Below are positions 30,405 to 51,500 of a stretch of DNA of 64,000 nucleotides, piece by piece. Positions within the stretch are counted from its first letter, which is position 1. Each line of letters opens with the position of its first letter. Made by a program: the position numbers and the translations under genes. Source of the DNA: Imbricaverruca yamaguchii (taxonomy: Eukaryota; Arthropoda; Thecostraca; Neoverrucidae); assembly GCA_034440575.1 (NCBI GenBank), contig JAOTOL010001623.1, forward strand, positions 1,140,501 through 1,204,500. The letters are read 5' to 3'. Below the pieces are notes generated by a model. That model was not told the origin of the DNA, did not search any database, and saw nothing but the letters and a program-made list of their open reading frames with translations.

Positions 30405-30507
30405 GTCGGAAGATAGCCGTCGACGCCAGCATGTGTATGTACCAGTTCCTGGTGGCCGTGCGACAAGAGGGCTCCACCCTTACCACCGCTGACGGCGAGA
30501 CCACCAG
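30405..30507 (+). CDS. FEN1: FEN1 exon 2 (N domain, first catalytic Asp)
   Basis: The acceptor is GCGCCTCCAG. It reads from Gly28 through [16 protein letters not shown] to TTADGETT and ends in phase 2 (AG before GTGAGT). The last 27 nt plus 47 nt of intron are the seed unit of the 74 bp array that follows. Confidence 0.93.
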
Positions 30508-33500
30508 GTGAGTGGGCCGTCTGCCGACGGGACCATTGTAGGATGCCGCCGGGGTACCACCGCTGACGGCGAGACCACCAGGTGAGTGGGCGGTCTGCCG
30601 ACGGGACCAGTGTAGGATGCCGCCGGGGTACCACTGCTGACGGCGAGACCACCAGGTGAGCGGGCCGTCCGCCGACGGGACCAGTGTAGGATGCCGCCGG
30701 GGTACCACCGCTGACGGCGAGACCACCAGGTGAGTGGGCGGTCTGCCGACGGGACCAGTGTAGGATGCCGCCGGGGTACCACCGCTGACGGCGAGACCAC
30801 CAGGTGAGTGGGCCGTCTGCCGACGGGACCTTGTAGGATGCCGCCGGGGTACCACCGCTGACGGCGAGACCACCAGGTGAGTGGGCCGTCTGCCGACGGG
30901 ACCAGTGTAGGATGCCGCCGGGGTACCACCGCTGACGGCGAGACCACCAGGTGAGCGGGCCGTCTGCCGACGGGACCAGTGTAGGATGCCGCCGGGGTAC
31001 CACCGCTGACGGCGAGACCACCAGGTGAGTGGGCGGTCTGCCGACGGGACCCGTGTAGGATGCCGCCGGGGGTACCACCGCTGACGGCGAGACCACCAGG
31101 TGAGTGGGCCGTCCGCCGACGGGACCAGTGTAGGATGCCGCCGGGGTACCACCGCTGACGGCGAGACCACTAAGTGAGCGGGCAGTCTGCCGACGGGACC
31201 AGTGTAGGATGCCGCCGGGGTACCACCGCTGACGGCGAGACCACCAGGTGAGTGGGCAGTCTGCCGACGGGACCCGTGTAGGATGCCGACGGGACCAGTG
31301 TAGGATCCCGCCGGGGTACCACCGCTGACGGCGAGACCACCAGGTGAGTGGGCAGTCTGCCGACGGGACCAGTGTAGGATGCCGCCGGGGTACCACCGCT
31401 GACGGCGAGACCACTAATTGAGCGGGCAGTCTGTCGACGGGACCAGTGTAGGATGCCGCCGGGGTACCACCGCTGACGGCGAGACCACCAGGTGAGTGGG
31501 CCGTCTGCCGACGGGACCAGTGTAGGATGCCGCCGGGGTACCACCGCTGACGGCGAGACCACTAAGTGAGCGGGCAGTCTGCCGACGGGACCAGTGTAGG
31601 ATGCCGCCGGGGTACCACCGCTGACGGCGAGACCACCAGGTGAGTGGGCAGTCTGCGCGGGACCCGTGTAGGATGCCGACGGGACCAGTGTAGGATCCCG
31701 CCGGGGTACCACCGCTGACGGCGAGACCACCAGGTGAGTGGGCAGTCTGCCGACGGGACCAGTGTAGGATGCCGCCGGGGTACCACCGCTGACGGCGAGA
31801 CCACTAATTGAGCGGGCAGTCTGCCGACGGGACCAGTGTAGGATGCCGCCGGGGTACCACCGCTGGACGGCGAGACCATTGGTGTACGTTAGGTGGTGAA
31901 CGGGCGAATTTGCCGACGGGACCAGTGTTAGGATCCGCCGGGTACCGCTAGACTTTTGGCGAGACCACTAAGTGAGTGGGCAGTCTGCCGACGGGACCAG
32001 TGTATAATTGGATGCCGCGCCGGGGTACCACCGCTGACGGCGAGACCACTAAGTGAGCGGGCAGTCTGCCGACGGGACCAGTGTAGGATGCCGCCGGGGT
32101 ACCACCGCTGACGGCGAGACCACCAGGTGAGCGGGCCGTCCGCCGACGGGACCAGTGTAGTATGCCGTTGGGGGCGCTGGATGAGTGAGGGCAAGGAGTG
32201 GGCTATCAGGCTCCGGCCACATGAGGCCGACTTTGCGCGTTTTCTGGTTGAAAACCACCAGGCGCGAGCGCCTGTCCTCACCCCCCCCCCCGCCCCTCCC
32301 ATAACATTGGCCCGTTTTCATCCACCTTTGGACCGCCCTGGCTGCGCTTCCGGCTCCCTTAAGGCTGGCGCAGAATAGGGTATCGCACCGGCAGAAGTGT
32401 TGCAGATACGGCAGGGGCACGGCAGAGCACGACAGAAGTACGGCATAGCACGACATTGCCTATGCTCCAATGTCTGGCCAGGAGTTGCAGCCTACGCAGA
32501 TGCGCCGGCTCGCGATATTTACGTACGATAGGTTTAAATACATTACATACATTACATGCATGTAATACATGCATTGCGTACATGCATTTCATACGTGGAA
32601 TACATACACTACGTACGTGTATTACATACATTGCATGCATGCATTATATACATTACATGATTGCACTGCATATATACATTCTACTTATGCATACACTACA
32701 TGCGCTACATACATTAGGTTGACGGCCGAAGCTCGGCGCAAGGAGCCGGCAGCGAAACAGCCGGAGCCGTTGGAACCATGGCGGGGTGTTGGTGTGCAGA
32801 GATACAGAGCGGAGAGAGGTCAGGCACGGATACGGACCAGTGGGAGAAGAGCGCCTTTTCGCCGGTAGGGGGTATGATGGGCACACAACACAAGGCAATG
32901 CGGGAAGCCCTTCAGTTCGAGGTGCAGCGGGACGCAGCAGAGAGCCGGGGAGTGACGCGACCGCACGTCTGATAGAAGGCAAACTCGCGGGGAGTTACCT
33001 GGCCCTTCTCGGGTCGTTCATTCATTTTCGTGTCGCGTCTGACCACTGAACGTTTTGGTCTGTCTTGGGATACGGCCGCGCCCCTCGTCGAGCCGCCAGG
33101 GCTGGCTGGCCAGTCGGTCTCGCCGGTCGACGCTCTCACCGCTCTAGGCATGCAGTGCACTCGCTCCGGCACACGTTCCAGTGTTACCGGTCCTGTGGCG
33201 GGTGGCCCACCTCGGCGCATACACCTGTGTTGCCTGGTACTCGCGCTGCCTGATACCTCTGGCCGGCATATCACGTCTGCGTCAGCTGGTGAAGGAGGGT
33301 GGACCTCTGGGATGGGCGGCGGCCGGCTGTCAGCACCACCCCTTGCCCTCTGTGTCGGTCGCGCCCAGCCACGCAGGGCGGCTGGGGTGCCGGCCGGCAA
33401 TGCCAGAGGGAAAGTTTCGTCTCTGGTGAGGACATTTTCGCACTTTTTTGGTATCTATTGGCTCTATGCTTGTGCCTCTGTTGAGTAGTCGTAATGAGCC

Positions 33501-36500
33501 CTCCGACAAAAAAGTAATTTTCGGAAATTATCCCCCAAAAAGCAGCGTCAGAAAGGACATTTCAGCACAGTGCCGTGTTCTCGCTATTATAGAAAAAAGC
33601 CTCACGGAAGGCAGGCGGATTTTTTTGCCTTCACCCCACTTCCCGCCGTTTCCTCACATGGAAAAACCAACCTCCGATTTTTGCATGTCGGTCGGTCTGG
33701 CAAATTGCCTACCGGCTGTTCGTGTATTATCTGCCAGTGTGTTACATGTGTGCCCGACCGACCTAGCTTCTTCGCGTTTGCCGCCGAAACAGCTGTGCTG
33801 ATCGGACGGTAATTTTGACATGTGGTGCACCCATTTAGTTGGACAGATTGCGGTGGTGATTTTATGTTCTCGCGGTCACGTGCGCTCGCGCCATGTGACA
33901 CCAACCAAACGCCGTGCGCACCCGCCACGCAGCGCTAACTGGGACGACATGGACGACCTCCATATGTCTTTTTTATTATTCTTTATATTTCTGAGTACCG
34001 CCACACCTCAAACCAACAATGTGGACTTTTGGACAAACTAGGGGTATGTGAAGTTGGATTGCACTTATTATATTATGCTTTTTTTGTCGTCGCGACGGAA
34101 CAAGCTTAACGTCTAGGTGAGGTTCGAGAGTTAGCAACGCAACTGAGAAGACTAACCACAAAAGCGTTTTCATTTGCCCGGTTTCGTGTATGTAATGCCA
34201 TGTGTGACGTTCCCGTGTGATGACGTGTGACTTGCGACGTGTGATCCATTTCAGTCACCTGATGGGAATGTTTTACCGAACGATCCGCATGGTGGAGAAT
34301 GGCATCAAGCCTGTGTACGTGTTCGACGGCAAACCTCCAGACATGAAGGGCGGGGAGCTGGCCAAACGCGCCGGGCGGCGAGACGATGCGCAGAAGGCGC
34401 TCACCCAGGCCGAGGAGCAGGGTGAGTTACGGTGTGAGAGGGGGAGGGGGCGGCGTGACGGTGGCAGAAGGCGATTACCCAGGTTGAGGAGCAGGGTGAG
34501 TTATGGTGGCAAGGGGGGGGGCGAGCGGCGGGATGATGCGCAGAAGGCGTTCACCCAGGCTAAGGAGCAGGGTGAGTTATGGTGGCAGGGGGGGTGGCGA
34601 GCGGTGGGATTATGCGCAGAAGGCGTTCACCCAGGCTAAGGAGCAGGGTGAGCTACGGTGGTTAGATGAGAGGGGGCGAGCGGCGAGACGATGCGCAGAA
34701 GGCGCTCACTCAGGCCAAGGAGCAGGGTGGGTTCCGGTGGAGATGAGGGGAGGCTGTTAGTCAGAAGTATATGACGGTAGTTGGGAAGAAGGACGCTGGG
34801 AATGGGTGAGCCTGAGAGTCGATGAAGGCGTGTGTTAATATTTAGAGGGACATCGTTTGGGGAATTGGGCTCGGATAAGTTAAGGTGGCTAGATATATAT
34901 AACATGCATTTGTGCTGTTGTTGTTTTGCCATGTCATCGGCATGGTGTTGCATCCTGTTGGCTATAAACACCTCGAATCCTGCAATGATCAACACTGGAT
35001 ACCAATACGCGGACGCTCCGGATCACTTGCTGGACACTGGCCGCTAGCCGCCGGCCGCTTCCACACCATCAACGAGAACTGCAGCGGCTGCCACTGCAGA
35101 AGTACGGAGCTCAGCTCAAGGTGGCCAGCGCAGCATGAATTTCCCCGTCAATCGTTTGGAGAAGAGTGTGTGCGACCGAATCCAACGGGCGCCTTGCTGT
35201 AGACACTGATACAACATTCCGTAGCCGACTGTAGTGCCCAAAGCTCAATGTCAGTTGATGCTACAGGAAGTGCTATTTAGTGGCGGGGTCTCACGTGTTC
35301 AGCGATTTGCCAGCTTCTGGGCATTGTGATTACCGGGCGCCTGTTGCGTCGCTCGCGAAAACATTCAGTCTAGGATCATTCAGCGCGTGTGTTTCCAATG
35401 GTAGTGAGAAATTAGTGTTGCTTGGGGCGTGTTATAAAGTGGAGAGTCATCTGGTGGTGTCTTCCTGCACCAGTGCTTCAGGAAGACAGCCCCAAGTGGT
35501 ATTTGGTATGTGGTACGTGTGCCACAGTGGGGCATCTGCTGCCTGGCAGTTTTACAATGGGCACGAGGTGCAGAGTCATCTGGTGGTGTCTTCCTGCATC
35601 AGTGTTTCAGGAAGAGAGCACCTGGTGGTAGAGGAGCCCTGGTGTGGGGAACTTCAGGAAGTGTGCCACAGTGCGGAAGCCACAGGAAGTGTGCCTGATG
35701 TACTGTTGTACCACAATGGACACATGCTTACATCACGTAACCTGTGGTTTTGCAGGGAACCAGGAGGACATCGACAAGTTCAGCCGTCGCCTGGTCAAGG
35801 TTACCAAGGCTCATGTGGACGAAGTCAAGGAGCTGCTCAAGTTGATGGGCATCCCGTGCGTAGAGGTGGGTGCAACAGTCGCATCTCGATCAGCAGTCAG
35901 CGGCCGCCATTGCCGACGGGTTCGTTCAACTAAACTGGTCCCTGCAGGGCGCTTGTTCCACCTCATACCTTCACGCTATCATGGAAACACCTGGCTTCCT
36001 GGTGTAAAGCGTGGCCTAAGTCGTGGTACGGCGGTGTTGTGTGTTCATGGTCACGTCACGAATACGGTCCCAGCATCGGCTCAGAACGTCGGGCAAAAGA
36101 TGCCAGTGAAGACCAGTGAGGGGCGCAGTGGAGACAATTGGTGCCGTGTCGTCCGGTGGCGATGCACCATGCACATTGTACACTAAATAGTGCACATTGG
36201 TGTGCATATGTACGGCAGGGCATTGGCTGAAGTGTCACGGGCGGGTGTCTGCTGTGACGTCATTGTCTGCGACCCGCGGCTGCCTTGCAACGCTATGTCG
36301 CCTTCGCTCCTGTATCATCTGGGCGTCTCGGATAGAATGCCAAGTAGGGTACTCACGTCAGCATACAAAAACTACACCCGGTGCGTTGTAATTCATGTAT
36401 ACCAACCTGGGTCACTGATGGGCTTTGCCTACCAGTGTCCTGGGATTCCGCACCGATGCTCAACTGGTTAGAACGCTGGCCTGCATTGATCTCTCCTTTC

Positions 36501-39500
36501 ATGGCACAGACTGGGTTGGAGTCGCTTCACGCGCTCCCATTTAATTCCCGGCTAGGAGGGTCAGTTGGCAGCTGGCCCGATAAGGCCGGGGACAAGCTGC
36601 CGGCTGGCCGTGTCGGTGTGTTGGCGGGGCGATACACTTTCGGTCATAATACTGCCGTTGAACTGGAATTAACGGATTGCGGGGGACAGGGTTCACGCTA
36701 CGAGCTCTGGTCAGTAAAAGAACCGCGGTCCATGCAGCCATTCCAGTAAGATGCAGGCCAAATTTCTTTTCTTTTTTTAAAAGAAAAAGTGGGTTGGTTG
36801 TTCAAGGCTTTCAGTGATATCTGTATTGCATTGATACGGCCTTCCCACCGGTAAGCAACAGCACACCAATTGTCTACAGTGCACTAGCACACGGATCACT
36901 ACGGCAGTATGCAACAGAAGCAACACTAATGGTGTGCAGTGCACTAGCACACGCATCACAACGGCAGTATGCACCAGAAGCAACCCTAATAGTGTGCAGT
37001 GCACTAGCACACTGTTCACTGCGGCAGTATGCAACAGAAGCAACACTAATGGTGTGCAGTGCACTAGCACACGGATCACTACGGCAGTATGCAACAGAAG
37101 CAACGCTAATGGTGTGCAGTGCACCAGCACACGGATCACTACGTGAGTTCGGGTGCCATGTTCCAGTACGCGTGCACCTGACGAGTCGGCCAACAACACC
37201 AATACATTGTTATGGCAGCGGCAGGGTATCACAAGACAGCAGCTCAGCTCAACATCCACCACCTCATGATACAAGTGGACTGCATTGCAGGATGTACAAG
37301 AGTGGTAGGGTATGCCATAGGCCGTAGCGACCAACGCGCAGGTGCTGTGAGGGCAAGTACTGCGTACGACGAAACCAATTCTATTGGGTGCTGAATGATC
37401 AAGTTTTGGTCGAAGCGCACTTAAACTAAAATACTAACTAAGAGCAATACTAAAATACTAACTAAGAGCAATCCTAGTTTGCGTGTTCAGTTGCCTAAAT
37501 TGTTTTTGCAAGGAGTAAACTATGAACTTGGTGCACCAGCATCCATCCACGATTTCGTGTTGCCTGTGCAACAGGAGTTAGCGTCTATGGTTGTATCATG
37601 CAGCTGTGCTTTATATCAAGCTGCTCCAAAAACTATCGTGAAAAAGTATGCTTATATCAAACAGGCCTTTCTCCTCATCTAGGCTACATTTCTGTGGGAA
37701 GACACTTTATGATGAAAAAAATCCGATTCTCATTTGCTGTTAAAACCTAGGATGTATCATTAAATACAGAGGTGCTACCGGTGGCGCTGTACAAGACCGG
37801 TGCGCGTGTGCGGGTGTCGCTCCGTACGGTGTCACTCCTTACGGTGTCACTCCTTACAGTGTCACTCCGTACGGTGTCACTCCTTACGGTGTCACTCCGT
37901 ACGGTGTCACTCCGTACGGTGTCACTCCGTACGGCACCACGTGTGGTGTCGTGTGAAGGTATCGTCAGGCCGGTGGCCGGTGAATGAGGGTAAGGGCCGA
38001 CATCGACTGGTGCTGACGTCACTGTCCACAAGTCCACTGCATCCGGCTAACCCCCTGGTCCTGCCCTCACAGCTTCGCCGTCTACACTACTGTACATACT
38101 CACCGCTCAGCCGGTAATGCCGTGGTCAGATCCGTCGCTGCCGCTTCACTGCTACACATACTCACCGCTCAGCCGGTAATGCCGAGGCAAGATCTGCCTC
38201 CCGCGTGGCAGTTAGTTGGCAACACACGGACGGTGATCCGCGTCTATCCCTGGAATGGATAGACGCTGGGATAGAAGCCGTAGCCGGTCAGACCGTTGTA
38301 GTACTGGCTGTAGTCGGGATAGTAGTAGAGGCCGGGCATGACGCCGAAATCGGCGACGGCGGCGGTTGGCGGCGCTGTCGGAGCTGCCGTGGGGGCTGCC
38401 GTAGGGTCTGTAGTTGGAGGTGCCGTCGCAGCTTTGGTCGCGGTGGCTGCCGACGACGGCCCCGCACCGGCTGCGCCACGCGTGGCGGAGCCGGCCCCGA
38501 CCCGACTAGCGGCTGTGACCGACGCCGGCACGGCGGTGATGGGCGCGCCGGCGGCCGCCGCCGATATGGCCGCCTCCAGAGCCGCCTGGATGTGCGCGCG
38601 CGCCGCCTGCAGCGCCAGCCTCTTCACGGTGGCAGCGTCAGAGGCAGGCTCTGCGGCGCCTGAGGCGGGTCCTGCGGGCACGGCAGCGAGCTCTGCAGAA
38701 CCTGCGGCGGGTGCTGTGGGGACCGCAGCCGGTGCTGCGGGTACGGCGGCTGGTGCTGCGGGCACGGCGGCCGGTGCTGCGGGTACGGCGGCCGGTGCTG
38801 CGGGTACGGCGGCCGGTGCTGCGGGTACGGTGGCCGGTGCTGCGGGTACGGCGCCCGGTGCTGCGGGTACGGCGCCCGGTGCTGCGGGTACGGCGGCCAC
38901 GTTTACTGCCAGCGGCGGGCCAGCTCCAGGGACTGGCCCGACCTGCTGACTGAGGACAGACTGGCAGTAGCTGGGGTGGTACAGACTGCAGTACCAGGGC
39001 AGCTGAGCCTGCCTGGCCGTCACCAGCGTGACCAACACCAGCAGGTACTTCATGCTGACGCCGGGACGTGACGGGTGGCCGGCTGACACTTGGCTGGCAG
39101 GCGTGCGTGGCCGCTTTATAGGCGGCGGCGGCGGCGGCGGCCCGCGGCCAGGACCGGTTGGGGCGGCGGGCGGCAGCGGCAGGCGACGGCGGCAGGTGAC
39201 GGGCCGATAACCGATGGCGTGCCGTCTGCCGCGCGGATCGGTCGCCACCGGTGCTGTCGTGCGTCGCTGGCCCGCCGCCCTGCACGGCACGCGCCGAGTC
39301 TGTCGCAACCGGGGAAGGTCGCGCTGGGGTAAAGTGGCGTCGTGGTGCGTGGGGCGTGGTGGAGGAGCAAGGCTGAAATTTTCCTTGAAAATACTAAACA
39401 ATTTATTGCAATCCACCTGTACTAGTTAGACATCGCACTAGCTTTGCTGTGGACTGTAGCAAATATGTGTACGCATGATCCCCTCTGCCGAATATGGTGA

Positions 39501-42500
39501 ACATATATCAAGTTACGATGCACTACCATTGTCGAAATACGCTGTGCTTCGTTCAGAAAAGCCTGCACTCACGCACGAAAATTAAGGCAATATGGACGTG
39601 TGAACTTGTCACGACATTGTATACACTGTTGTCTATCGCTGCTCCTTCGTCTGGCCTGTATAGACCCTCCATTTATTATCTACATGTGAAGGGTCCGTCT
39701 ATTGCATCCGAGTCACCCAGGGGCCCTCTGTACTTGTAAGACTGACATGGTGTCTCCTCGTTAGGTATCCTGTCTCCCTATGAGACACAAGTGTATGACC
39801 TTCCCGTGAGACAAGTGCAGCCCCCCCCCCGTGGGAAACTAGTGTGCCGTCTCCCTATGAGGAACGAGTATGGTGTCTCATCGATACGTGGGTTCGTATC
39901 TCCCCGTGACGCTGGGGAAGTGTTAAACATGGAATCGTAGGTGGATTTTTGAGTGCCGAGCAATGACGAATCACTAATAAAACTTACTTCGTTTTTCCAA
40001 ATCGTAGTTTATAATCTTTGTGCTCAAGCAGTATAACCTGGGCGCTACATGACCAATGTAGTCGATGCGCCCTAAAGCCCTAATAACTAACTAAGCAGTA
40101 TAACCAATATTCTGTTACTAGCTGGCTACCTTGCTGATGTGCTCGTGGGACTAATTCTACTAATACCTGGTGGTCTATCTGAAAAAGAAAAGTCAGGCAT
40201 TCATGATTTCGCTGTGCTGATTCTCGGACAGTTTTACTACAGGAAAACCCAGAATAAATGGAAATTGTAATAGTCCGCGCAGCTAAATATGCTAGGGTAT
40301 TGCATATGAAACAAAAGTCGACATAAGGGGTGGGGATGGCCGAGTGGTTAAGGTGTCGGGCTATGGGTACCAAAGGTCCCGGGTTCGACTCTAGCGCCAC
40401 TCAGGACATTTCCCAATCCCGCGGCCCACCGGCGAAACAGCGTGGGCGGCGCCATTAGCCGTGAATGTGCATAAAGTGTGTCGTGAACCAACCAATAAAC
40501 AAACAAAGAGTCGACATAAGAAAAGACACCTGAAGTGACATTGTCAACATATTGTGAAGACATATTTGGTTTATACTACATATGTGCTGAATATTTCATT
40601 TTGCTGTCTTGTGTTTTCTGGGCTTATACGTTCCTGCAACAGAAACCGAATCCAACAATCCAGCCCAGGTGTAGCATCTAAGGCGTAGCTGTAGTGTCTC
40701 CATGCGAGGCGGATGGGGAGACACTGCATTTCACATCTCCATGTGAGGGGAGATGCAGTGTCTCCATGTGAGGCGGAGGTGTGCTGTCTCCCCGTGAGGC
40801 GGAGTCGCAGTGTCTCCCCGTGATGCGAAGGTGTGCTGTCTCACCGTGAGGTGGAGGTGTGCTGTTTCCCCGTGAGGCGGAGTCACAGTGACCCCTGTGA
40901 GGCGGAGTCTCAGTGTCCCCCTGTGACCATCAGGCACCCTGTGAGGAGGAGTCACAGTGTCCACTATGACCATCAGGCACCCTGTGAGGCGGAGGCGCAG
41001 TGTCCCCCTGTGACCATCAGGCGCCCTGTGAGGCGGAGTCACAGTGTCCACTGTGACCACCAGGCGCCCTATGAGGAGGAGTCAGTGTCCTCTGTGACCA
41101 CCAGGCGCCCTGTGAGGCGGAGTCACAGTGTCCACTGTGACCACCAGGCGCCCTGTGAGGCGGAGTCACAGTGTCCACTGTGACCATCAGGCGCCCTGTG
41201 AGGCGGAGTCACAGTGTCCACTGTGACCACCAGGCGCCCTGTGAGGAGTCACAGTGTCCACTGTGACCACCAGGCGCCCTGTGAGGAGTCACAGTGTCCA
41301 CTGTGACCACCAGGCGCCCTGTGAGGAGGAGTCACAGTGTCCACTGTGACCACCAGGCGCCCTGTGAGGAGGAGTCGCAGTGTACTATGTGACCATCAGG
41401 CACCCTGTGAGGCGGAGTCACAGTGTCCACTGTAACCACCAGGCGCCCTGTGAGGCGGAGTCAGTGTCCACTGTGACCATCAGGCGCCCTGTGAGGCGGA
41501 GTCACAGTGTCCCCCTGTGACCACCAGGCGCCCTGTGAGGAGGAGTCACAGTGTCCACTGTGACCACCAGGCGCCCTGTGAGGAGGAGTCACAGTGTCCT
41601 CTGTGACCACCAGGCGCCCTGTGTGGAGGAGTCACAGTGTACTATGTGACCATCAGGCACCCTGTGAGGAGTCACAGTGTCCACTGTGACCACCAGGCGC
41701 CCTGTGAGGAGTCACAGTGTCCACTGTGACCACCAGGCGCCCTGTGAGGAGGAGTCAGTGTCCACTGTGACCATCAGGCGCCCTGTGAGGCGGAGTCACA
41801 GTGTCCTCTGTGACCATCAGGCACCCTGTGAGGCGGAGTCACAGTGTCCACTGTGACCACCAGGCGCCCTGTGAGGGGAGTCACAGTGTCCACTGTGACC
41901 ACCAGGCGCCCTGTGAGGAGGAGTCACAGTGTCCTCTGTGACCATCAGGCACCCTGTGAGGCGGAGTCACAGTGTCCACTGTGACCACCAGGCGCCCTGT
42001 GAGGAGTCAGACAGACAGACAGACTTTATTGAGGTCATCCACAATTGACTTGTGGCTATTACGACATCGCGTCAAATAGATAAAACAACACAGCACAAAA
42101 GGTAAAAAAGAGGGTCAAAATCAGAGAATACAAGTTAAACTATTAAAAAAACATATATATAAAATAACAGCAAGTCGAGCAGTCTATCAGTCCGGCACGG
42201 GCGGCACGTCAAGTACATACTCCCGTAGGTGGCGACCAAAGATCGATACGGGAAGTCGCGTCAGCTCAGGTGGCAGTGAGTTGTACATGTGTGGCGCTCT
42301 GGAACTAAAACGTCTCTTCCCCATCTCGGTGCGGGACCGGGGGACATACAAGTTGTGATCTTGACGGGTGGTCCGGTCACGAATCTCCGCCATGGTGGTG
42401 AGATCGTGAGCCAGTGACTCTGGCTCACCATGGAGACGCACCTTGTGTATGAGGCGAAGGGTGTGATAACTCGCCAGGTTCTCCGCGCTGAGCCAGCCCA

Positions 42501-45500
42501 GCCTCCTCAGCAGATCCGAAACGTGGTCAAACTTTTTGCGGCCGAAAATTACCTTAGCCGAGTAGTTTATGATTTTTTGAATGCGAGATAGGTTCTTTTT
42601 GCCTCCGTTACCATACACAGAAATACAGTAGCGGATCTGCGAGAAGATCAGAGCATTGTCCAGCGCGGAGATGGCGGCAAGTGGAAGGTGCCCCCTCAGA
42701 TGCGACAGACCACCTAGAACTCCGAAACAACGCCGAGTCAATTCTGAGACGTGCGAGTCCCAGCTGAGAGAGCGATCGAAAATAATACCGAGATTTTTGC
42801 ATTCCGAAATGGTGGGTAGATGATCGCGAAATTTCACTGTGACATCCGGTAAGGCACGCAGATTTTGTGGGCTGCCCAACATCATCAGCTGTGTCTTTGC
42901 TACGTTAATTTTCAGTCCATTTGCTCGAAACCAGATATCGAGGGAGGCCAGAACTGTTTCCATATGAGTGACAACATTTTGAATTTGAGATTTCTTACCA
43001 CTGACCAAAATTTGGGTGTCGTCAGCGTATTGAACAACTACTGCACCTTCGGCGAACAGGCTGAGGTCGTTGGCGAAGACGCAGTAGAGGAGAGGTCCGA
43101 GAGATGATCCTTGAAAAACGCCGATGCTGTTGGGCAACGGGGCAGATTTGTGGACGACACTCAGATTGTCAGTAAGGCTGACACTCTGGGTGTGGTTCTG
43201 AAGATAAGCCGAAAACCAGGAAGTATCGATGCTGTGGAGACTTAATTTTGACAGGAGTTTTGAGTGATCTATCACATCAAAGCACTTGCTCAAATCCAGC
43301 AGGCAGAGAAGGGACACCTCTCCATGGTCACATGCGGATAGGATCTGGTCAGATATGGAGGTCAGTGCGGTTTCAGTCGAGTGACGAGGACGGAAGCCGT
43401 GCTGAGTTTGGGAGAGGAGGTGGTTATCGGACAGGTAATTGTAGAGTTGCTGGTGGACGGCACGCTCTACAATTTTCGCAATGACTGGGACGATGGAGAT
43501 AGGACGGAAATTGGAAGGGTTACAGGGATCACCGGACTTGAAGATAGGATGGACGAGGGAGTTCTTCCAAGAATCAGGAACATCGGATTGGGTAATGCTG
43601 GAATTGACCAAATGCAGGAGCACCTCACCTAACGAGTCGAAGCACACCCTGAACATGTGGATGCTGATGCCGTCTTCGCCACAGGCCGACGACCCGCTCA
43701 TCCCGAAGACGATGGCTCGCAGCTGAGATAGCGACAACGACTCCAGGGTGAACGCACAGGCACCGACACGCGGCAAACGGCAGGAGATACTCGGCGTCGC
43801 TCCCATACTCCTAACCTCGTCAGCCACGCACGGGCCCACGCGGACAAAAAATAGGTTAAGGTCATCAACTGTCGCGTCGGGCAGCTTACGAATGGCCTGC
43901 TTGCCGCCGACAAATGACCTGATATGTCGCCACATTGACCTCTGCCCATCCTCACGGATTCGCCGCTCAACGTCGTTCCGGCTATCACGTCTAATCGCCG
44001 ATCGTACAGCTCGGTTGGCGTCCCTGTACTCCGTGGACTGGTGCCCATAAACGGTCAGCGCACCACGGCGGCTACACATTAAAGCTTTAGTTCCATCTGA
44101 TACGAATGGGGCGCTAGGGTTCCTGATTCTAACAGTCCTGATGGGAGCATGGATGTCAATGATGGGTAAAAAGATGTTCAGAAAACAGTCCCACTTGAGC
44201 GTGACGGAGGGATAATTAAAAACAGAACTCCAGTCAGCCAAACAAAGATCGTAAAGCAAAGCATTCGGATCAGTACGGCGAAAGCAACGCGTGCGAACGG
44301 TGGCGCCGCTCGGTCTGGATCTGGGCACATCGACTGAAAAACGAACGAATCTATGCGGACTAAAATGACAAAATTGTGTACGGCAGTGCTGCACAATGTC
44401 ACGACAGTTGGTGATAACTACGTCAAGGAGGGAGCCAGTTGAATAGGTGGGCTAGGTCACACATTGAAATAACGAGTAATCAAAAATAAAATTAGACAGC
44501 ACACGCTTACCTTGGTCCGAGTCTGGTTTCCGTAAGTCACAATTTAAATATCCGCAAATAAAAAGTTTGGACTTCGGATAGTCAACAATCACACGCTGGA
44601 ATTGTGCTTCTAGGTCTGCAAAGTCCGCTTTCAAGTCGGTCAGATTCCGTCTCGGTGGACGATATGCGGTGCAGATGATGAATTGGCGCTTGCTGTCTGG
44701 TTTAACCAACATCCACAACGTCTCCAGCTTGCTGGTGGGATGGTTGACAGCCGTTGTGATTTTCAGCAGAGACGCGTTGGTACCTTCCCTGGCGGCCAGC
44801 GCCACTCCTCCGTACCCTCGCCCGTCGGGGCGATCGGCCCGGTACAGCTGGTACCCAGGCAGCAGCAGCAATCTGTTGGGCGTCGCAGGCTTCAGCCAGG
44901 TTTCGGCCAGGCATATGATGTCATACTTGTTGCGATGTAGTACTTCAGACATTTCCAGTAATTTTGGCTTAATGCTTTGGATGTTCAGCAAGCAAATGTT
45001 GAGTCTTGAACTTGGAGCTGGCCATAGATTCCTCTGTCGGCGTTGGGCGCCTTTGCTCCCTCGCTTCCTCGCGTCACGGTGTCCACTGGGACCACCAGGC
45101 GCCTTGTGAGGAGGAGTCACAGTGTCCTCTGTGACCACCAGGCGCCCTGTGAGGCGGAGTCTCAGTGACCCCTGTGAGGCGGAGTCTCAGTGACCCCTGT
45201 GAGGCGGAGTCTCAGTGTCCCCCTGTGACCACCTGGCGCCCTGTGAGGCGGAGTCTCAGTGTCCCCCTGTGACCACCAGGCGCCCTGTGAGGAGGAGTCA
45301 CAGTGTCCTCTGTGACCATCAGGCGCCCTGTGAGGCGGAGGCGCAGTGTGCGGCCCTGGTGAAGGCCGGCAAGGTGTACGCCACGGCCACCGAGGACATG
45401 GACGCGCTCACCTTCGGCACCACGGTGATGCTGCGCCACATGACTGTCAGTGAGGCGCGCAAGATGCCCGTCAAGGAGTACCACCTCAACAACCTGCTGG

Positions 45501-48500
45501 CAGAGGCCGGCCTCAACCAGGAGGAGGTGGGTGGCCAGTTGGCCGGCGCACCGGATAGATAGACGACCGTTTAAAATTAAGACGCGATACCGAGACGCTT
45601 GCTCGGTGTGGAAAATTAGATCTGACTATCTGACCATCTGATTGTGGTGAAGGTGCATTGGTTCAACTATCTAATCACAGCGAATGGCGCCAAGTGACGT
45701 TGGCAGTCGACGTGCTCCTCAGCTCTAATAAACAAACGGAAGTAATCGCAGTCATGATGGTTCCGCATGCCCACACGAGTTCATTTCCAGTGCTTTATCT
45801 GAAGAGAGTCGTTCCGTTTCCGATGCTCGGATAAAAAGAGTGATTTCGTCAACATCTGGTCCATTCGTAAGGACATTGCATATGCATTGTTTTAACGAGA
45901 AGCTAGTATAATATATGTATTTGTATGTTCCGATCGGCTGCTTTTCGACGAGGTGGTGCCCTACTTGTCCAGGCGTCGCTTAACTATTTGGCTGTCCAGT
46001 GACATAATACCGTGGTGAGTGTCTCGCGTCAGACGCAGTTTTTTTCTTCCTAATGTCGACCCCTGTTCGTATGCAGTAGCCTATCCTATTTGGCTACACG
46101 TACTGTTACAGGCTCGATTGCTATTGGGCTTTCCCATCGCCAACTATTCAAAAGTTAGGACAGCCAGCTTCGGAATGCCTCAGGATGCCAATATACATGT
46201 CAGTACTCTCCACACCTACAGTTCACTATAACTATTTGCATCTTTTTATTTGTCTTTTTTTGCAGGGAGGCCACCACCAGTTATTAGTAGAAGTATCCCC
46301 AGGAGCGCCTCAGCTAGGTAGCAAGCTAGTAACGCCAAGGAACTCCTGGGGCCACAAAGTGAAAAGTGTTATGAGGGGAAAAGTGTACATACATCTGCAC
46401 TATCACACAAATCTGTGTGACAGCGTCACATCATGTCCACACACATGAAACATGTACACCTAAACTTACTTCACTTACATAAATACATGCACTCACACAT
46501 ACATACAAATATATATACATACACATATGCTGGCATATACATACATAAGTTTACACTGATATGCATCCATGCACATCCATGCACATCCATGCACAAACAT
46601 CCACACAGTAGCACACATGCAATTAATCATATAGGTACAAATGCATCATCGCATATGTATTTACTTGTTTGTCCAGCTTTACTCATACATACATATTATA
46701 CATATCAACCTACATATAGCTTCTCCTTTTTGTAATGCGAAATTGTTAATTTTACTAACCATTTAGTTTGAGATGTATAAATCAATAAAATATGTTCTGA
46801 TAACTATTTTTATGTCTTCTTTCTGAATAGGTACATTATTACAAGAGGGAAATTTTGTACCAATGATAGTATTCCAAGTTCTTGGTGCTATAAATTGTAT
46901 GGAATGAAGTCTATAGGTTTTTTATGAAAAAGGTACATGGAAATGTTCAGCATGCCTCAAGTTACTTGGTGATGAGTATTTGAACATAATAAGCATAAGT
47001 TTACACCACTTGGCTGTCCAGTGACGCAACACCGTGGTGAGTGTGACGTCAGACGCTGTCTACACCACTTGGCTGTCCAGTGTCGTGATACCCTGGTGAG
47101 TGTCGCGTCATCAGGCGTTGTTTACACCACTTGGCTGTCCGGTGACGTGATACCGTGGTGAGTGTCGCGTCACCAGGCGTTGTTTACACCACTTGGCTGT
47201 CCAGTGTCGTGATACCTTGGTGAGTGTGTCGCGTCACCAGGCGTTGTTTACACCACTTGGCTGTCCAGTGTCGTGATACCGTGGTGAGTGTGTCGCGTCA
47301 TCAGGCGTTGTCTACACCACTTGGCTGTCCAGTGTCGTGATACCGTGGTGAGTGCGTCGCGTCATCAGGCGTTGTTTACACCACTTGGCTGTCCGGTGAC
47401 GTGATACCGTGGTGAGTGTGTCGCGTCATCAGGCGTTGTTTACACCACTTGGCTGTCCGGTGAGGTGATACCGTGGTGAGTGCGTCGCGTCATCAGGCGT
47501 TGTTTACACCACTTGGCTGTCAAGTGACGTAGTACCGTGGTGAGTGTGTCGCGTCATCAGGCGTTGTTTACACCACTTGGCTGCCCAGTGTCGTGATACC
47601 GTGGTGAGTGTGTCGCGTCATCAGGCGTTGTTTACACCACTTGGCTGTCCAGTGTCGTGATACCGTGGTGAGTGTGTCGCGTCATCAGGCGTTGTTTACA
47701 CCACTTGGCTGTCAAGTGACGTAGTACCGTAGTTAGTGTGTGACGCAATTGTGTGCCGGCCAGTTCATCGATCTGTGTATCCTGATGGGCTGCGACTACT
47801 GCGACTCGATCCGCGGCATCGGACCCAAGCGTGCCATCGAGCTGATCCAGAAGCACCGCAGCATCGACAACATCCTCGTCCACGTGGACCGCTCCAAGTA
47901 CACGGTGCCCGAAGACTGGCCGTACAAGGAGGCGCGGCGCCTCTTCGTCTCGCCGGATGTGAAGGACGCTGCTGAGGTGCAGGTGGGTGCTGCAGAACTT
48001 CATTTCCCCCACCTCGCATCTCCAAATTCCATGTCTTGGCTAATGGACGTACAGGTGGATGCTGGAAAGCTCCAATTATTCCCTTATCGCTCCCGTGATC
48101 TGGACGTACAGGTGAATGTCGTGCTCCCGTGCGCTGGGTAACAGACACGCAGGTGAATGCTCCACAGCTTCTGTCTCCCTTCTGTACCGTGCGCCAGGTA
48201 GCCGACGTACAGACTCGAGAGCTTCAGTCCCCTCGCGCCCCCGCGCGCTGGCTAACAAGCGAAGTCCATGTGCAGTTAACTACAGTAATGCGCTTTATTC
48301 CATTTTCAGAACAGTCCTTCCGAAGCTCAACTTGTAAATCGTTCTGTGGTGACACAGGCATACGTGGTGCGCGAATCCCTGACTTCCCGAGACAAACTAG
48401 CGTATTTATGAACATGTTCTCCTCGTCACAGTCTGTTTCCGAGCTCACGTTCGCCAGTAGCTCGTACGACAAACGTACGACACCGTTGCGATTTGAACCC

Positions 48501-51500
48501 GCACAAAGTTGTAGCAATCGTTGCCAAGCTTAACCGCGCTGTGCCAGTGGCTGTGGACGTATGCACTCGATGGGTGTCTCGCACCAATCGAAATGTGTTT
48601 TTTTAAATCACATCTTTGGTGTTACTTGAGATACATTTATGAGTCGTCGGCGTGCTACTGACGTCCGGTTCCCGATAAAAGAACATGTTTAAGAAAAAGA
48701 ATTACGGGTACTGGTGCTTGGCTGTCATGCGTGATTTATAAAGCGTGGTTTATGTCTAGATGATTTTTAATTGACTTGTTTATTGACATGAGAAATAGGA
48801 TTATGTATATAGTTTTACAGAAATGTATTGACGAAAGGGCTGAAAAGCCATGTTATTGTGGAGACCTTAATAAATCTGACTATGACTATGACTATGCCCG
48901 TACACAGCGGGCCAGGTTTGCATCGCATTGCGCACTGACACCATCTGTCACCTAGTGTTCAACGTCCTCGCCCATTGATACCACACACTACCTTGTGCCG
49001 AACGTAAGGCGGAGGGAACTGGGTGGCACGCGCGCGGTCCCGCTGACTACACCCGACCGACCGGCGAGTCTGGCGGGTCTGTAGTCAGTGGAGCCGTATA
49101 GTCGGGACGAGTGTTGGTCGGTGTGGGGCCACTTGTGGCTGTGGACTGGTGGCTGGGGACGATAACTGACCTCACCAGTCACCCCCCCCCCCTCGGCAGC
49201 ACGTGTGCGGTTGAGCTGACAGCTGTTGATCTGGACGGGCCGGGCAGTAGTCTATGACATGAGGAGTACGTCAGCGGTCGCAGACGATGGCATGTGTAGC
49301 CGTGTACTCGGCTAGTGCAGTCAGAAATATACCGCTCGACATTATCAGTATTATGTACGTCGGTTCTCTGTGGCCAATTCACGTTGACTTTGAAACGTCG
49401 TACACACTATCTTTGTATAAGGCGAACCTTCTGGTCATTAAATTGTTGGCCATTATCCAGCAAACTTTTACTGACCCCCTGCAGCTTCAGTGAATGGAGC
49501 CAGGCTAGGCTCGACTTATTTCTCGCCCCTTACAACTCGCTACATGACAGACGTAGTCGATGCGCCCCTAACCCCCTCCCCCTTACAGCTCAAGTTGGTG
49601 GAGCCAGACCAGGCTTGACGTGTTTATCGCCCCTACAGCTCAAATGGGTGGGGTTAGACCAGGCTTGGCGTGTTTTTCGGCCCCCACAGCTCAAGTGGGT
49701 GGGGATAGACCAGGCTTGACGTGTTTATCGGCCCCCACAGCTCAAGTGGGTGGAGCCAGATGGGGTTTTGCGTGTTCATCGCCCCCACAGCTCAAGTGGG
49801 CGGAGCCAGGTCAGGCGTGACATGTTTCTCGTTCCCTACTGCTCAAGTTGGTGGAGCCACACCAGGCGTGACGTGTTCTCGCCCCCTCACAGCTCAAGTG
49901 GGTGGAGCCAGACGAGGACGGGCTAGTGTCCTTCATGTGTGGCGACCGGGGCTTCAACGAAGAGCGGATCAGAAAAGGTGCCAAGAAGTTGACCAAGGCT
50001 CGCAACACACCCACCCAGGGTCGACTTGACTCGTTTATCAAGGTGTTGCCTTCCACCACCCCAGGAAAACGGAAGGTGGGTGGTTGCGAGGACTGCAACC
50101 GAGGCGTCTTAAGAAGCGAATGCCGGTGGTGCTGTGTTGATGTATATTCGTGTCGATGACGCTTACTGGCGTCGTCCTGACAGCCACAGTGTTCTGTCTG
50201 AATGAACGGGGTCAGTGCCGTTATCACTAGGATAGAACGTGTCGTTAATTGTCCCACGAGACGGCGTCTGACTGGGGAGGCGCTGTGGGCATGACAGCTG
50301 TTGCGCTCCGCAGCGAGAATACATCCAGTGCGTCTTGAGTGCGACTCAAACACAACACCCATGACTAAATCCCACTGCTACGACATGGATAGTCGTTAGT
50401 TATGGACTAATTTCTATTTGAAGCAGTTGCCTTCGCAGTCGATGCCAACTTGGGCGGTAACCAGCCAACCAGTAAAGCGATGAAGTCCACCATGAATATG
50501 ATCCAGAGGCACTTAGACGTGAATGTTTTCTGACTACCACTAAATGGTATGGAACACCTGACACAGCACTGTCTTCAAATGGCGCCATTTGAGACGAGTG
50601 ATTCTTGAACACGGGCATGGGATGACAATTGGAAGTCGCGAAATATATGGCAATTATATCCATGCCCGCGATAGTTTCGGCACCTTATACCACAAAACCT
50701 GCTGCCCATAGCATACCAGCTGTGTGTTGCCGGTACACTAGTTGTACCCATGGCCCGAAAATTACAGATAGTTTCGACTGCCTTTGAAAACCTTCCACTC
50801 ACACTTAAATGCAACTACCGAGACGTGATGTTCATGGATGCGTACCGTTCTTAGATGCCCTTTTGGCGGTAAACGCTATCTTTAACCTTCGCCTTCGCCT
50901 TTGTTCGATATATTGCCACCTTCAACCGTAAAGGATGTAGGTGGCCGTATCCCCCTCCCCTCCACGCCCCTTGCATTCCCAAGCTATAGATCGTACAGTG
51001 TAGGGAAATGAGGGTGTTGCGGCCGATGATATCTCTTGTTTCGTTTTTGTTGTGGGTAGGGTAGCCTTTGAAGAGTAATATTTGCCGAAAGTGCTGGATA
51101 TTTTCGTGTTCAATTATGGACTGAGATAAAGCAAATATTCACTTGGGAGAATGGCCAGGCACAACGTAAGTTAGTTTAACACGAGGACTGCATTTTCCTT
51201 TTTTAATGGTAAGTTCGTTCATTGCTCTCTGGTGTGCTCTTGAATGTGGAAAATGTGCGCTCAATCTAAATTCAGGACCAACCGTGGGATAATCACGAAC
51301 TTAATGAGGTCGTCCTACGTTACCAGAGGCCAGTAGTTTCATGTATGGGTTTATGGGTCACTGACCCGATGACCCTAAAAGTTCGCTGATATATAACTTC
51401 CACATTCAGATGAACCGCTGCCCAGTGTCCTAAAATTATTTCACCTTTAACTGTGAGGATGAAGAAAGAAGTTATTTGGGAATAGTGAAAGATTGGAAGA

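What the first reader, a model, noticed from the sequence alone, without database searches (positions are those of the whole stretch)
30405..50075. FEN1 splice junctions are themselves amplified into minisatellites
Seen directly: at five of the FEN1 exon edges in this window (exon 2 donor, exon 3 donor, exon 5 acceptor, exon 6 donor, exon 7 acceptor) the adjacent intron holds tandem copies. Each copy contains both a piece of the exon and its splice site. Four cases are clear and the exon 6 case is degenerate. Exon-edge-derived arrays recurring through one gene are not something I know as a described pattern. It suggests a mechanism or local predisposition that duplicates DNA across exon-intron boundaries, for example replication slippage, R-loop-linked breaks or gene conversion with retained exon homology.
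Basis: seen in the sequence. Interest (0 to 1): 0.92.

Follow-up and report, generated by a model that had tools for sequence, protein, structure and literature searches.

The report
Splice-junction minisatellites in barnacle FEN1
In a barnacle's FEN1 gene, four exon edges together with their splice sites have been copied over and over into the neighbouring introns; this looks like the 'mirage' repeats known from lancelets, here in a minisatellite-rich crustacean genome where some other genes show it too.

Summary
Four of the five edges hold: exon 2 donor, exon 3 donor, exon 5 acceptor, exon 7 acceptor. Each copy carries 25-47 nt of exon plus the splice site. At the exon 6 donor the repeats are degenerate and the exon part is not above chance.

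The animal is a barnacle (FEN1 82-84% identical to Amphibalanus and Pollicipes). The pattern is already described in lancelets as 'mirages', so 'not a described pattern' is wrong.

It is not special to FEN1. In the window's own 767-Mb assembly, minisatellites cover about 19% of 12 sampled 10-kb stretches, and junction-spanning arrays sit at 13 of 101 scored edges: FEN1 4 of 14, other genes 9 of 87 (80 of them CCT edges), where 2-4 are expected from GC-adjusted noncoding points (P 0.002-0.03 at most settings, 0.07-0.12 at the strictest). One CCT junction has 8 copies on one contig and at least 43 on another. One two-copy case looks newborn: an exon-intron segment duplicated between 8-nt direct repeats.

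Best reading: ordinary slippage minisatellites that started across splice junctions and are tolerated because the outermost splice site still works. Known kind, new lineage.

The parts
30405..30507 (+). FEN1 exon 2
   Evidence: open frame, AG/GT sites, homology
30481..32173 (+). exon 2 donor array, 22 copies of ~74 nt; unit = last 27 nt of exon 2 + donor + 47 nt of intron
34255..34421 (+). FEN1 exon 3
34375..34751 (+). exon 3 donor array, 5 copies of ~76 nt; 47 nt of exon per copy
35756..35865 (+). FEN1 exon 4, no array at either edge
40878..42006 (+). exon 5 acceptor array, distal block, about 26 copies of ~43 nt (acceptor + first 27 nt of exon 5)
42007..45072 (-). non-LTR retroelement inside the exon 5 array, splitting it; GTCA at both ends as likely target site
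   Evidence: open frames 42190-44451 and 44455-45186 minus; reverse transcriptase and endonuclease domains among the scanned frames (one search does not name the members, so the assignment is inferred); ends read by eye
45073..45349 (+). exon 5 acceptor array, proximal block, ~6 copies including the functional junction
45323..45526 (+). FEN1 exon 5
46999..47741 (+). minisatellite upstream of exon 6 (64 nt); ends 22 nt before exon 6; no exon sequence found in it; one genome search found its unit only here
47764..47982 (+). FEN1 exon 6
48046..48262 (+). degenerate repeats after the exon 6 donor; exon part not above chance
49578..49917 (+). exon 7 acceptor array, 7 copies of ~51 nt plus a degenerate one at 49475; 25 nt of exon per copy
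49893..50075 (+). FEN1 exon 7
52528..52596 (+). FEN1 exon 8 with stop codon

Best explanation
These are mirage-type minisatellites. Step 1 (one example in another gene; inferred for FEN1): slippage or repair between two short direct repeats, one in the exon edge and one in the adjacent intron, tandemly duplicates a segment of some 20-100 nt that contains the splice junction. Step 2 (a copy-number difference shown at one junction, inferred for the others): ordinary minisatellite slippage or unequal exchange changes copy number. Step 3 (inferred from coding frame): the outermost splice site (first donor, last acceptor) keeps working, so the extra copies fall in the intron and are tolerated, while duplications wholly inside exons are removed by selection. 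The genome is dense in minisatellites, so a number of splice junctions are caught; FEN1 is a gene with an unusually high share, not a special target.
For: Four FEN1 edges with exon+splice-site units, interiors essentially clean. Same in XRCC1 (40-nt unit, 9.8 copies, 19 nt of exon) and in four of eight CCT loci. Minisatellite density: 52 arrays and 19% coverage in 12 sampled 10-kb stretches, one of them half N. Two-copy case at a CCT donor: ~96-nt unit, 51 nt of exon, TGTGCGTG beginning the exon copy and again after the second copy. Copy-number difference at one CCT junction: 8.3 on C1012 versus at least 43.7 on C89, where the array reaches the end of the fetched stretch. Edge arrays resemble other arrays: 13 vs 55 arrays, median identity 84 vs 83%, copies 6.6 vs 5.9, period 51 vs 34 nt, none significant (P 0.30, 0.32, 0.11). 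Decoy use would hurt: 56 of the 57 FEN1 decoy splice sites caught by simple motifs give a premature stop. FEN1 itself is an intact 378-codon gene.
Against: The flanking direct repeat was looked at for one array only and lies beside a TG-rich tract, so chance is possible; at the FEN1 arrays I saw no clear short repeat by eye. Junction-spanning arrays exceed the random-placement expectation, so pure indifference to exon edges may be too simple. No RNA data: that the outermost site is used is inferred from frame. C1012 and C89 could be recent paralogues rather than alleles. The survey outside FEN1 is mostly CCT genes (80 of 87 edges).
Confidence: 0.8

Rival explanations
1. Splice junctions are preferred seeding sites: something tied to junctions (transcription or R-loops, splice-consensus microhomology, high exon GC) makes duplications there more often than elsewhere.
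For: Non-FEN1 genes: 9 of 87 edges versus 3.1 expected after GC adjustment (P 0.004; 3.1-3.8 and P 0.004-0.014 with other GC covariates), 7 of 87 versus 2.9 at exon part >=7 nt (P 0.03). Unadjusted control rates 1.4-3.5%.
Against: Weakens to P 0.07-0.12 when >=15 nt of exon is required. Few genes, edges of one gene are not independent, and the 3-nt cut-off was chosen. Array coverage 10 nt inside the intron is 13 of 101 (12.9%), against 6.5, 14.3, 22.1 and 26.4% at control points. 0 of 55 arrays in the sampled stretches carry a strict donor motif (about 1 expected).
Confidence: 0.35
2. Exons preserve rather than seed arrays: purifying selection keeps one copy intact, so edge arrays stay recognisable longer.
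For: Exon-derived columns are less diverse than intron-derived columns in 4 of 4 FEN1 arrays.
Against: With the functional copy left out no array reaches significance (P 0.16, 0.43, 0.16, 0.21); with it in, only the exon 7 array does (0.03). Edge arrays are not more diverged than other arrays.
Confidence: 0.2
3. Assembly artefact: collapsed or falsely repeated sequence.
For: Long arrays are error-prone; no reads were available.
Against: Copies differ individually, arrays have different periods and identities (80-95%), one is split by a retroelement, and the same kind of structure recurs on other contigs. Copy numbers may still be inexact.
Confidence: 0.05
4. Dispersed repeat or introner-like element that inserted at or made these introns.
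For: None found.
Against: Units contain the gene's own exon. The one unit searched genome-wide was found only at this locus (13 matches, all on C1390), but that unit is not exon-derived, the tool scores only its best candidates, and the exon 2 and exon 3 unit searches did not complete.
Confidence: 0.03

Closest known systems
Amphioxus 'mirages' (Adh3, globins BflGb6 and BflGb9, PGBD5, troponin C); PMC3087553 and PMC3902484, passages seen
   Same: Tandem repeats that span an exon-intron boundary, at donors or acceptors, many units carrying splice signals, with copy number differing between haplotypes of BflGb6 (6 and 3).
   Different: Cephalochordates versus a crustacean; here four edges of one gene and 13 of 101 sampled edges; unit lengths here 23-96 nt (10-160 bp in the lancelet passages); normal splicing was checked there by RT-PCR and not here.
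Human introns in tandem arrays (Zhuo 2007, cited in PMC3087553; not seen, recalled) and tandem repeats that modify genes in human segmental duplications (PMC2812944, passages seen)
   Same: Tandem duplication of DNA at or near splice sites.
   Different: As I recall it, there the two ends of one intron match each other; here only one end of each intron is repeated.
rad27/FEN1-type duplications, ABA to ABABA between short direct repeats (PMC5677150, passages seen)
   Same: The two-copy CCT case has that form, with an 8-nt A.
   Different: There seen on loss of the nuclease in yeast; no such loss is shown here.

Membership tests
Mirage minisatellites | tandem repeat unit spans an exon-intron boundary | tested here: met
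   FEN1 E2, E3, E5, E7; XRCC1 and CCT
Mirage minisatellites | both donor and acceptor boundaries affected | tested here: met
   FEN1: two donors, two acceptors
Mirage minisatellites | copy number differs between haplotypes | tested here: inconclusive
   8.3 versus >=43.7 copies at one CCT junction on two contigs; allelism not proven; FEN1 itself not tested
Mirage minisatellites | regular mRNA splicing despite the repeats | not testable with these tools
   no RNA; coding frame needs the outermost sites
Mirage minisatellites | somatic instability | not testable with these tools
   no reads
Mirage minisatellites | reported host group: cephalochordates | tested here: not met
   best named FEN1 hits are barnacles; the host group is where the term was coined, not a structural criterion
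Introns created within tandem arrays | 5' and 3' ends of the intron match each other | tested here: not met
   24-mers of the four FEN1 array edges have no copy near the other end of their intron; shorter matches not tested
Dispersed repeat or introner-like element | same unit at many loci | tested here: inconclusive
   46999 unit found only here; exon 2 unit search not answered, exon 3 unit search not answered

The most novel reading that the evidence does not exclude
A self-referential mutator: the one FEN1 found in this barnacle's assembly carries Ile in place of the second aromatic of its PCNA-binding box (F344I) and F27C, both at positions that are Phe in the scored homologues. A weakened FEN1-PCNA link could raise rad27-like direct-repeat duplications, flooding the genome, and the FEN1 gene's own splice junctions, with minisatellites.
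Probability: 0.06. Interest if true: 0.85.

Novelty: new member of a known kind. Interest (0 to 1): 0.5.

Why it matters
It carries a curiosity of lancelet genes into arthropods and suggests that junction-spanning minisatellites may be frequent in a minisatellite-rich genome (13 of 101 sampled edges with FEN1, 9 of 87 without it). That would make barnacles a test bed for how the spliceosome picks the outermost of many near-identical sites, for how intron boundaries drift, and for whether exon edges seed tandem duplication. It also warns that gene annotation in barnacles may meet decoy exon edges.

Tried and rejected
Exon 7 array versus the PIP-box segment of exon 7 (15 nt, 13 matching): reached by 78 of 500 array shuffles and 39 of 500 exon shuffles, so chance. 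In the same table the exon 7 array versus exon 4 scored above 60 of 60 shuffles (27; maximum 22) and the 46999 array versus exon 5 was reached by 3 of 60; with 36 comparisons I did not follow these up. Exon 6 donor as a fifth case: exon part at background. Exon-anchored conservation: same direction in 4 of 4 arrays, not significant overall. Other genes beside the window's remaining arrays: Pfam scans of 115 and 148 frames gave reverse transcriptase and endonuclease domains plus scattered other hits, some below 1e-4 among frames beside arrays (HupH_C, DUF6378, Inhibitor_I68), which I took for repeat artefacts and did not follow up; I placed no further gene. Donor motif among arrays: 0 of 55 in the sampled stretches, 0 of 23 flanking, 2 of 29 in the window, where the exon 2 unit was missed because the shortest period was kept. 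Of 1,730 codon-scored frames, 40 were scanned against Pfam; the second twenty gave no usable exon. No match to Rfam at gathering scores and no tRNA by ARAGORN. First fuzzy-match script timed out. Barnacle genome papers (PMC8917513, PMC8270832, PMC11331182; passages): no account of such arrays in the passages shown; 'satellite' occurs in neither of the two papers where I searched for it.

Rows dropped before the 101-edge count: the talin PTB donor (junction misplaced), the two edges of the C1012 ex3-ex4 pair (profile gap mismatch), and two exon pairs without a model. Edges never entered: glutathione peroxidase and potassium-channel exons, which showed no edge array in the copy profile, the GEN1-like exon L003, likewise none, a cuticle exon with internal coding repeats, three unplaced frames, and the unpaired first and last CCT edges. 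The L024 4995 and last-exon acceptors were set by hand; the XRCC1 b donor may be off by one; some CCT junctions have weak splice scores. Names EXO1 and GEN1 are mine by eye; Talin_middle and Branch scored just under Pfam's cut-offs. The splice-site weights used in the models are recalled, not fitted.
Full report
What is there. FEN1 in this window is an intact gene. Exons 2 to 8 lie at 30405-52596 and exon 1 lies about 3 kb upstream of the window on the same contig (L007 6925-7008). Together they encode 378 residues without an internal stop. The closest named proteins are barnacle FEN1s: Amphibalanus amphitrite 83-84% and Pollicipes pollicipes 82% identical. The window is position 1140501-1204500 of contig C1390 in a 767-Mb assembly.

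Check of the observation. Twenty-four-base words along each exon have forward-strand copies of exon sequence at four edges only; two overlapping words at the 3' end of exon 5 have one reverse-strand match each. Scored against the adjoining kilobase of intron, those four edges reach 80-110, while the best of 100 shuffles each is 33-42; 60-nt pieces from exon middles score 14-30. The arrays reach 27, 47, 27 and 25 nt into the exons. The exon 6 donor edge is weakly above shuffles (33 versus a maximum of 31 in 100; 14 of 1000 in a longer comparison), but its exon part cannot be told from background. A retroelement of about 3 kb sits inside the exon 5 array, so that array appears older than the insertion.

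Are the copies usable as splice sites? Taking a decoy instead of the outermost site would give a premature stop for 18 of 18 exon 2 donors, 3 of 4 exon 3 donors, 29 of 29 exon 5 acceptors and 6 of 6 exon 7 acceptors, so 56 of 57 (decoys found by simple motifs; 31 exon 5 rows were listed, of which one is the authentic site and one lies in the retroelement). Correct splicing therefore has to take the outermost site. This is inferred; no RNA was available.

Beyond FEN1. Twelve hand-picked 10-kb stretches (one with 5,000 N) hold 52 arrays of period 20 or more and at least 2.5 copies, covering 19%. A codon score found exons of XRCC1, talin, glutathione peroxidase and others. XRCC1, about 17 kb upstream of FEN1 exon 1 on the other strand, has an acceptor array of 9.8 copies of 40 nt that includes 19 nt of exon. 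A search for the chaperonin family gave 66 exon matches. Stretches with 54 of these 66, from eight contigs, were fetched, and edges were placed by frame, splice score and profile continuity. Four of the eight loci have at least one junction-spanning array.

Counts. 101 edges were scored: 14 FEN1, 4 XRCC1, 80 CCT, one each of talin, a Branch-domain gene and an EXO1-like gene. An array spanning the junction and ending 3-60 nt inside the exon occurs at 13: FEN1 4 of 14, others 9 of 87. The same event at random noncoding points has a rate of 3.5% in the sampled stretches, 3.0% and 1.4% in two sets of CCT introns and 3.2% in FEN1 introns. Exon edges are GC-rich (61% versus 51%) and arrays favour GC, so expectations were adjusted by logistic regression: for the 87 others 3.1-3.8 expected depending on the GC measure, P 0.004-0.014. 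In the sensitivity run others are 9 observed versus 3.1 expected (P 0.004); with at least 7 nt of exon 7 versus 2.9 (P 0.03); with at least 15 nt 5 versus 2.4 (P 0.09). Stricter array definitions give similar ratios, P 0.002-0.02 up to 10 nt and 0.07-0.12 at 15 nt. I moved the lower limit from 6-7 to 3 nt; that added two hits, which is why all limits are given. Edges of one gene are not independent. Coverage by arrays 10 nt inside the intron, 13 of 101, is within the 6.5-26.4% of control points, so arrays do not crowd towards exons; it is their ends that coincide with exon edges. A few looked-at exons without edge arrays were not entered in the count (see Tried and rejected).

How it arises. 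One CCT donor (L026 5634-5835) has just two copies of about 96 nt, with four differences over 99 aligned columns, the array reaching 51 nt into the exon; the octamer TGTGCGTG begins the exon copy and follows the second copy, next to a TG-rich tract. That is the ABA to ABABA form described for yeast lacking Rad27, the FEN1 homologue (PMC5677150, passages). Another CCT donor has 8.3 copies of a 62-68 nt unit on contig C1012 and at least 43.7 on C89, a second contig with the same exon. These show, in other genes of this genome, a likely birth and a copy-number change of the kind I infer for FEN1. Edge arrays do not differ significantly from other arrays in identity, copy number or period. A genome search with the unit of a neighbouring intronic array found it only at this locus, as expected for local birth; the same search with FEN1 edge units did not complete.

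Known or new. Lancelet papers describe the same structure, call it 'mirage', and report that splicing appears unaffected (PMC3087553 passages; PMC3902484 passage); the original Adh3 paper was not held. Seven literature searches, two of them naming barnacles, listed no crustacean report among the titles and abstract openings shown (several lists were capped far below the number of papers found). Passages of three barnacle genome papers did not mention it. I file it as a new member of a known kind in a new lineage.

A speculative link. FEN1 guards against this kind of duplication. The barnacle protein has Ile at the second aromatic of the PCNA-binding box; of the 120 best homologues held, 114 show the box in recognisable form and all 114 have Phe there. 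It also has Cys at residue 27, where the frequency of Phe in the compared homologues is 1.00 after rounding. The equation of this motif with human F343/F344 is recalled. Whether it weakens FEN1, or is a sequencing error, is open; I give the mutator reading 6%.

Noticed in passing
window 50037-50039 (exon 7, residue 344); exon 1 residue 27 in L007: FEN1 has F344I in the PCNA-interaction motif and F27C, both at positions otherwise Phe in the scored homologues.
   Followed up: partly
L005/L006 (C1390 minus strand, upstream of FEN1): XRCC1, another DNA repair gene, lies near FEN1 on the opposite strand and has its own acceptor array of 40-nt units.
   Followed up: partly
L037 (C89:301-3500) and L031/L035 (C1012): One CCT splice donor carries 8.3 copies on one contig and at least 43.7 on another: a striking length difference inside one assembly.
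   Followed up: partly
L012-L023: About 19% of the sampled sequence is minisatellite with period 20 or more; density rises with GC.
   Followed up: partly
window 38247-39425 minus: Long alanine-rich open frame with internal 21-nt coding repeats, nested in a FEN1 intron on the opposite strand.
   Followed up: no
window 40893-42006: The exon 5 array unit contains GTCACAGTG-TC-CACTGTGAC, an inverted repeat with a 2-nt loop, which may help slippage (read by eye).
   Followed up: no
window 40334-40400: tRNA-like stretch by eye, perhaps a SINE; ARAGORN reports no tRNA.
   Followed up: no
L017 7336-7623 (reverse-strand coordinates): In a Branch-domain gene a short-period array (about 12 nt) appears to run up to the exon start without containing exon sequence.
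   Followed up: partly
window 49578-49882 versus exon 4 (35756-35865): The exon 7 array has a local alignment with exon 4 above 60 of 60 shuffles; one of 36 comparisons, not examined.
   Followed up: no
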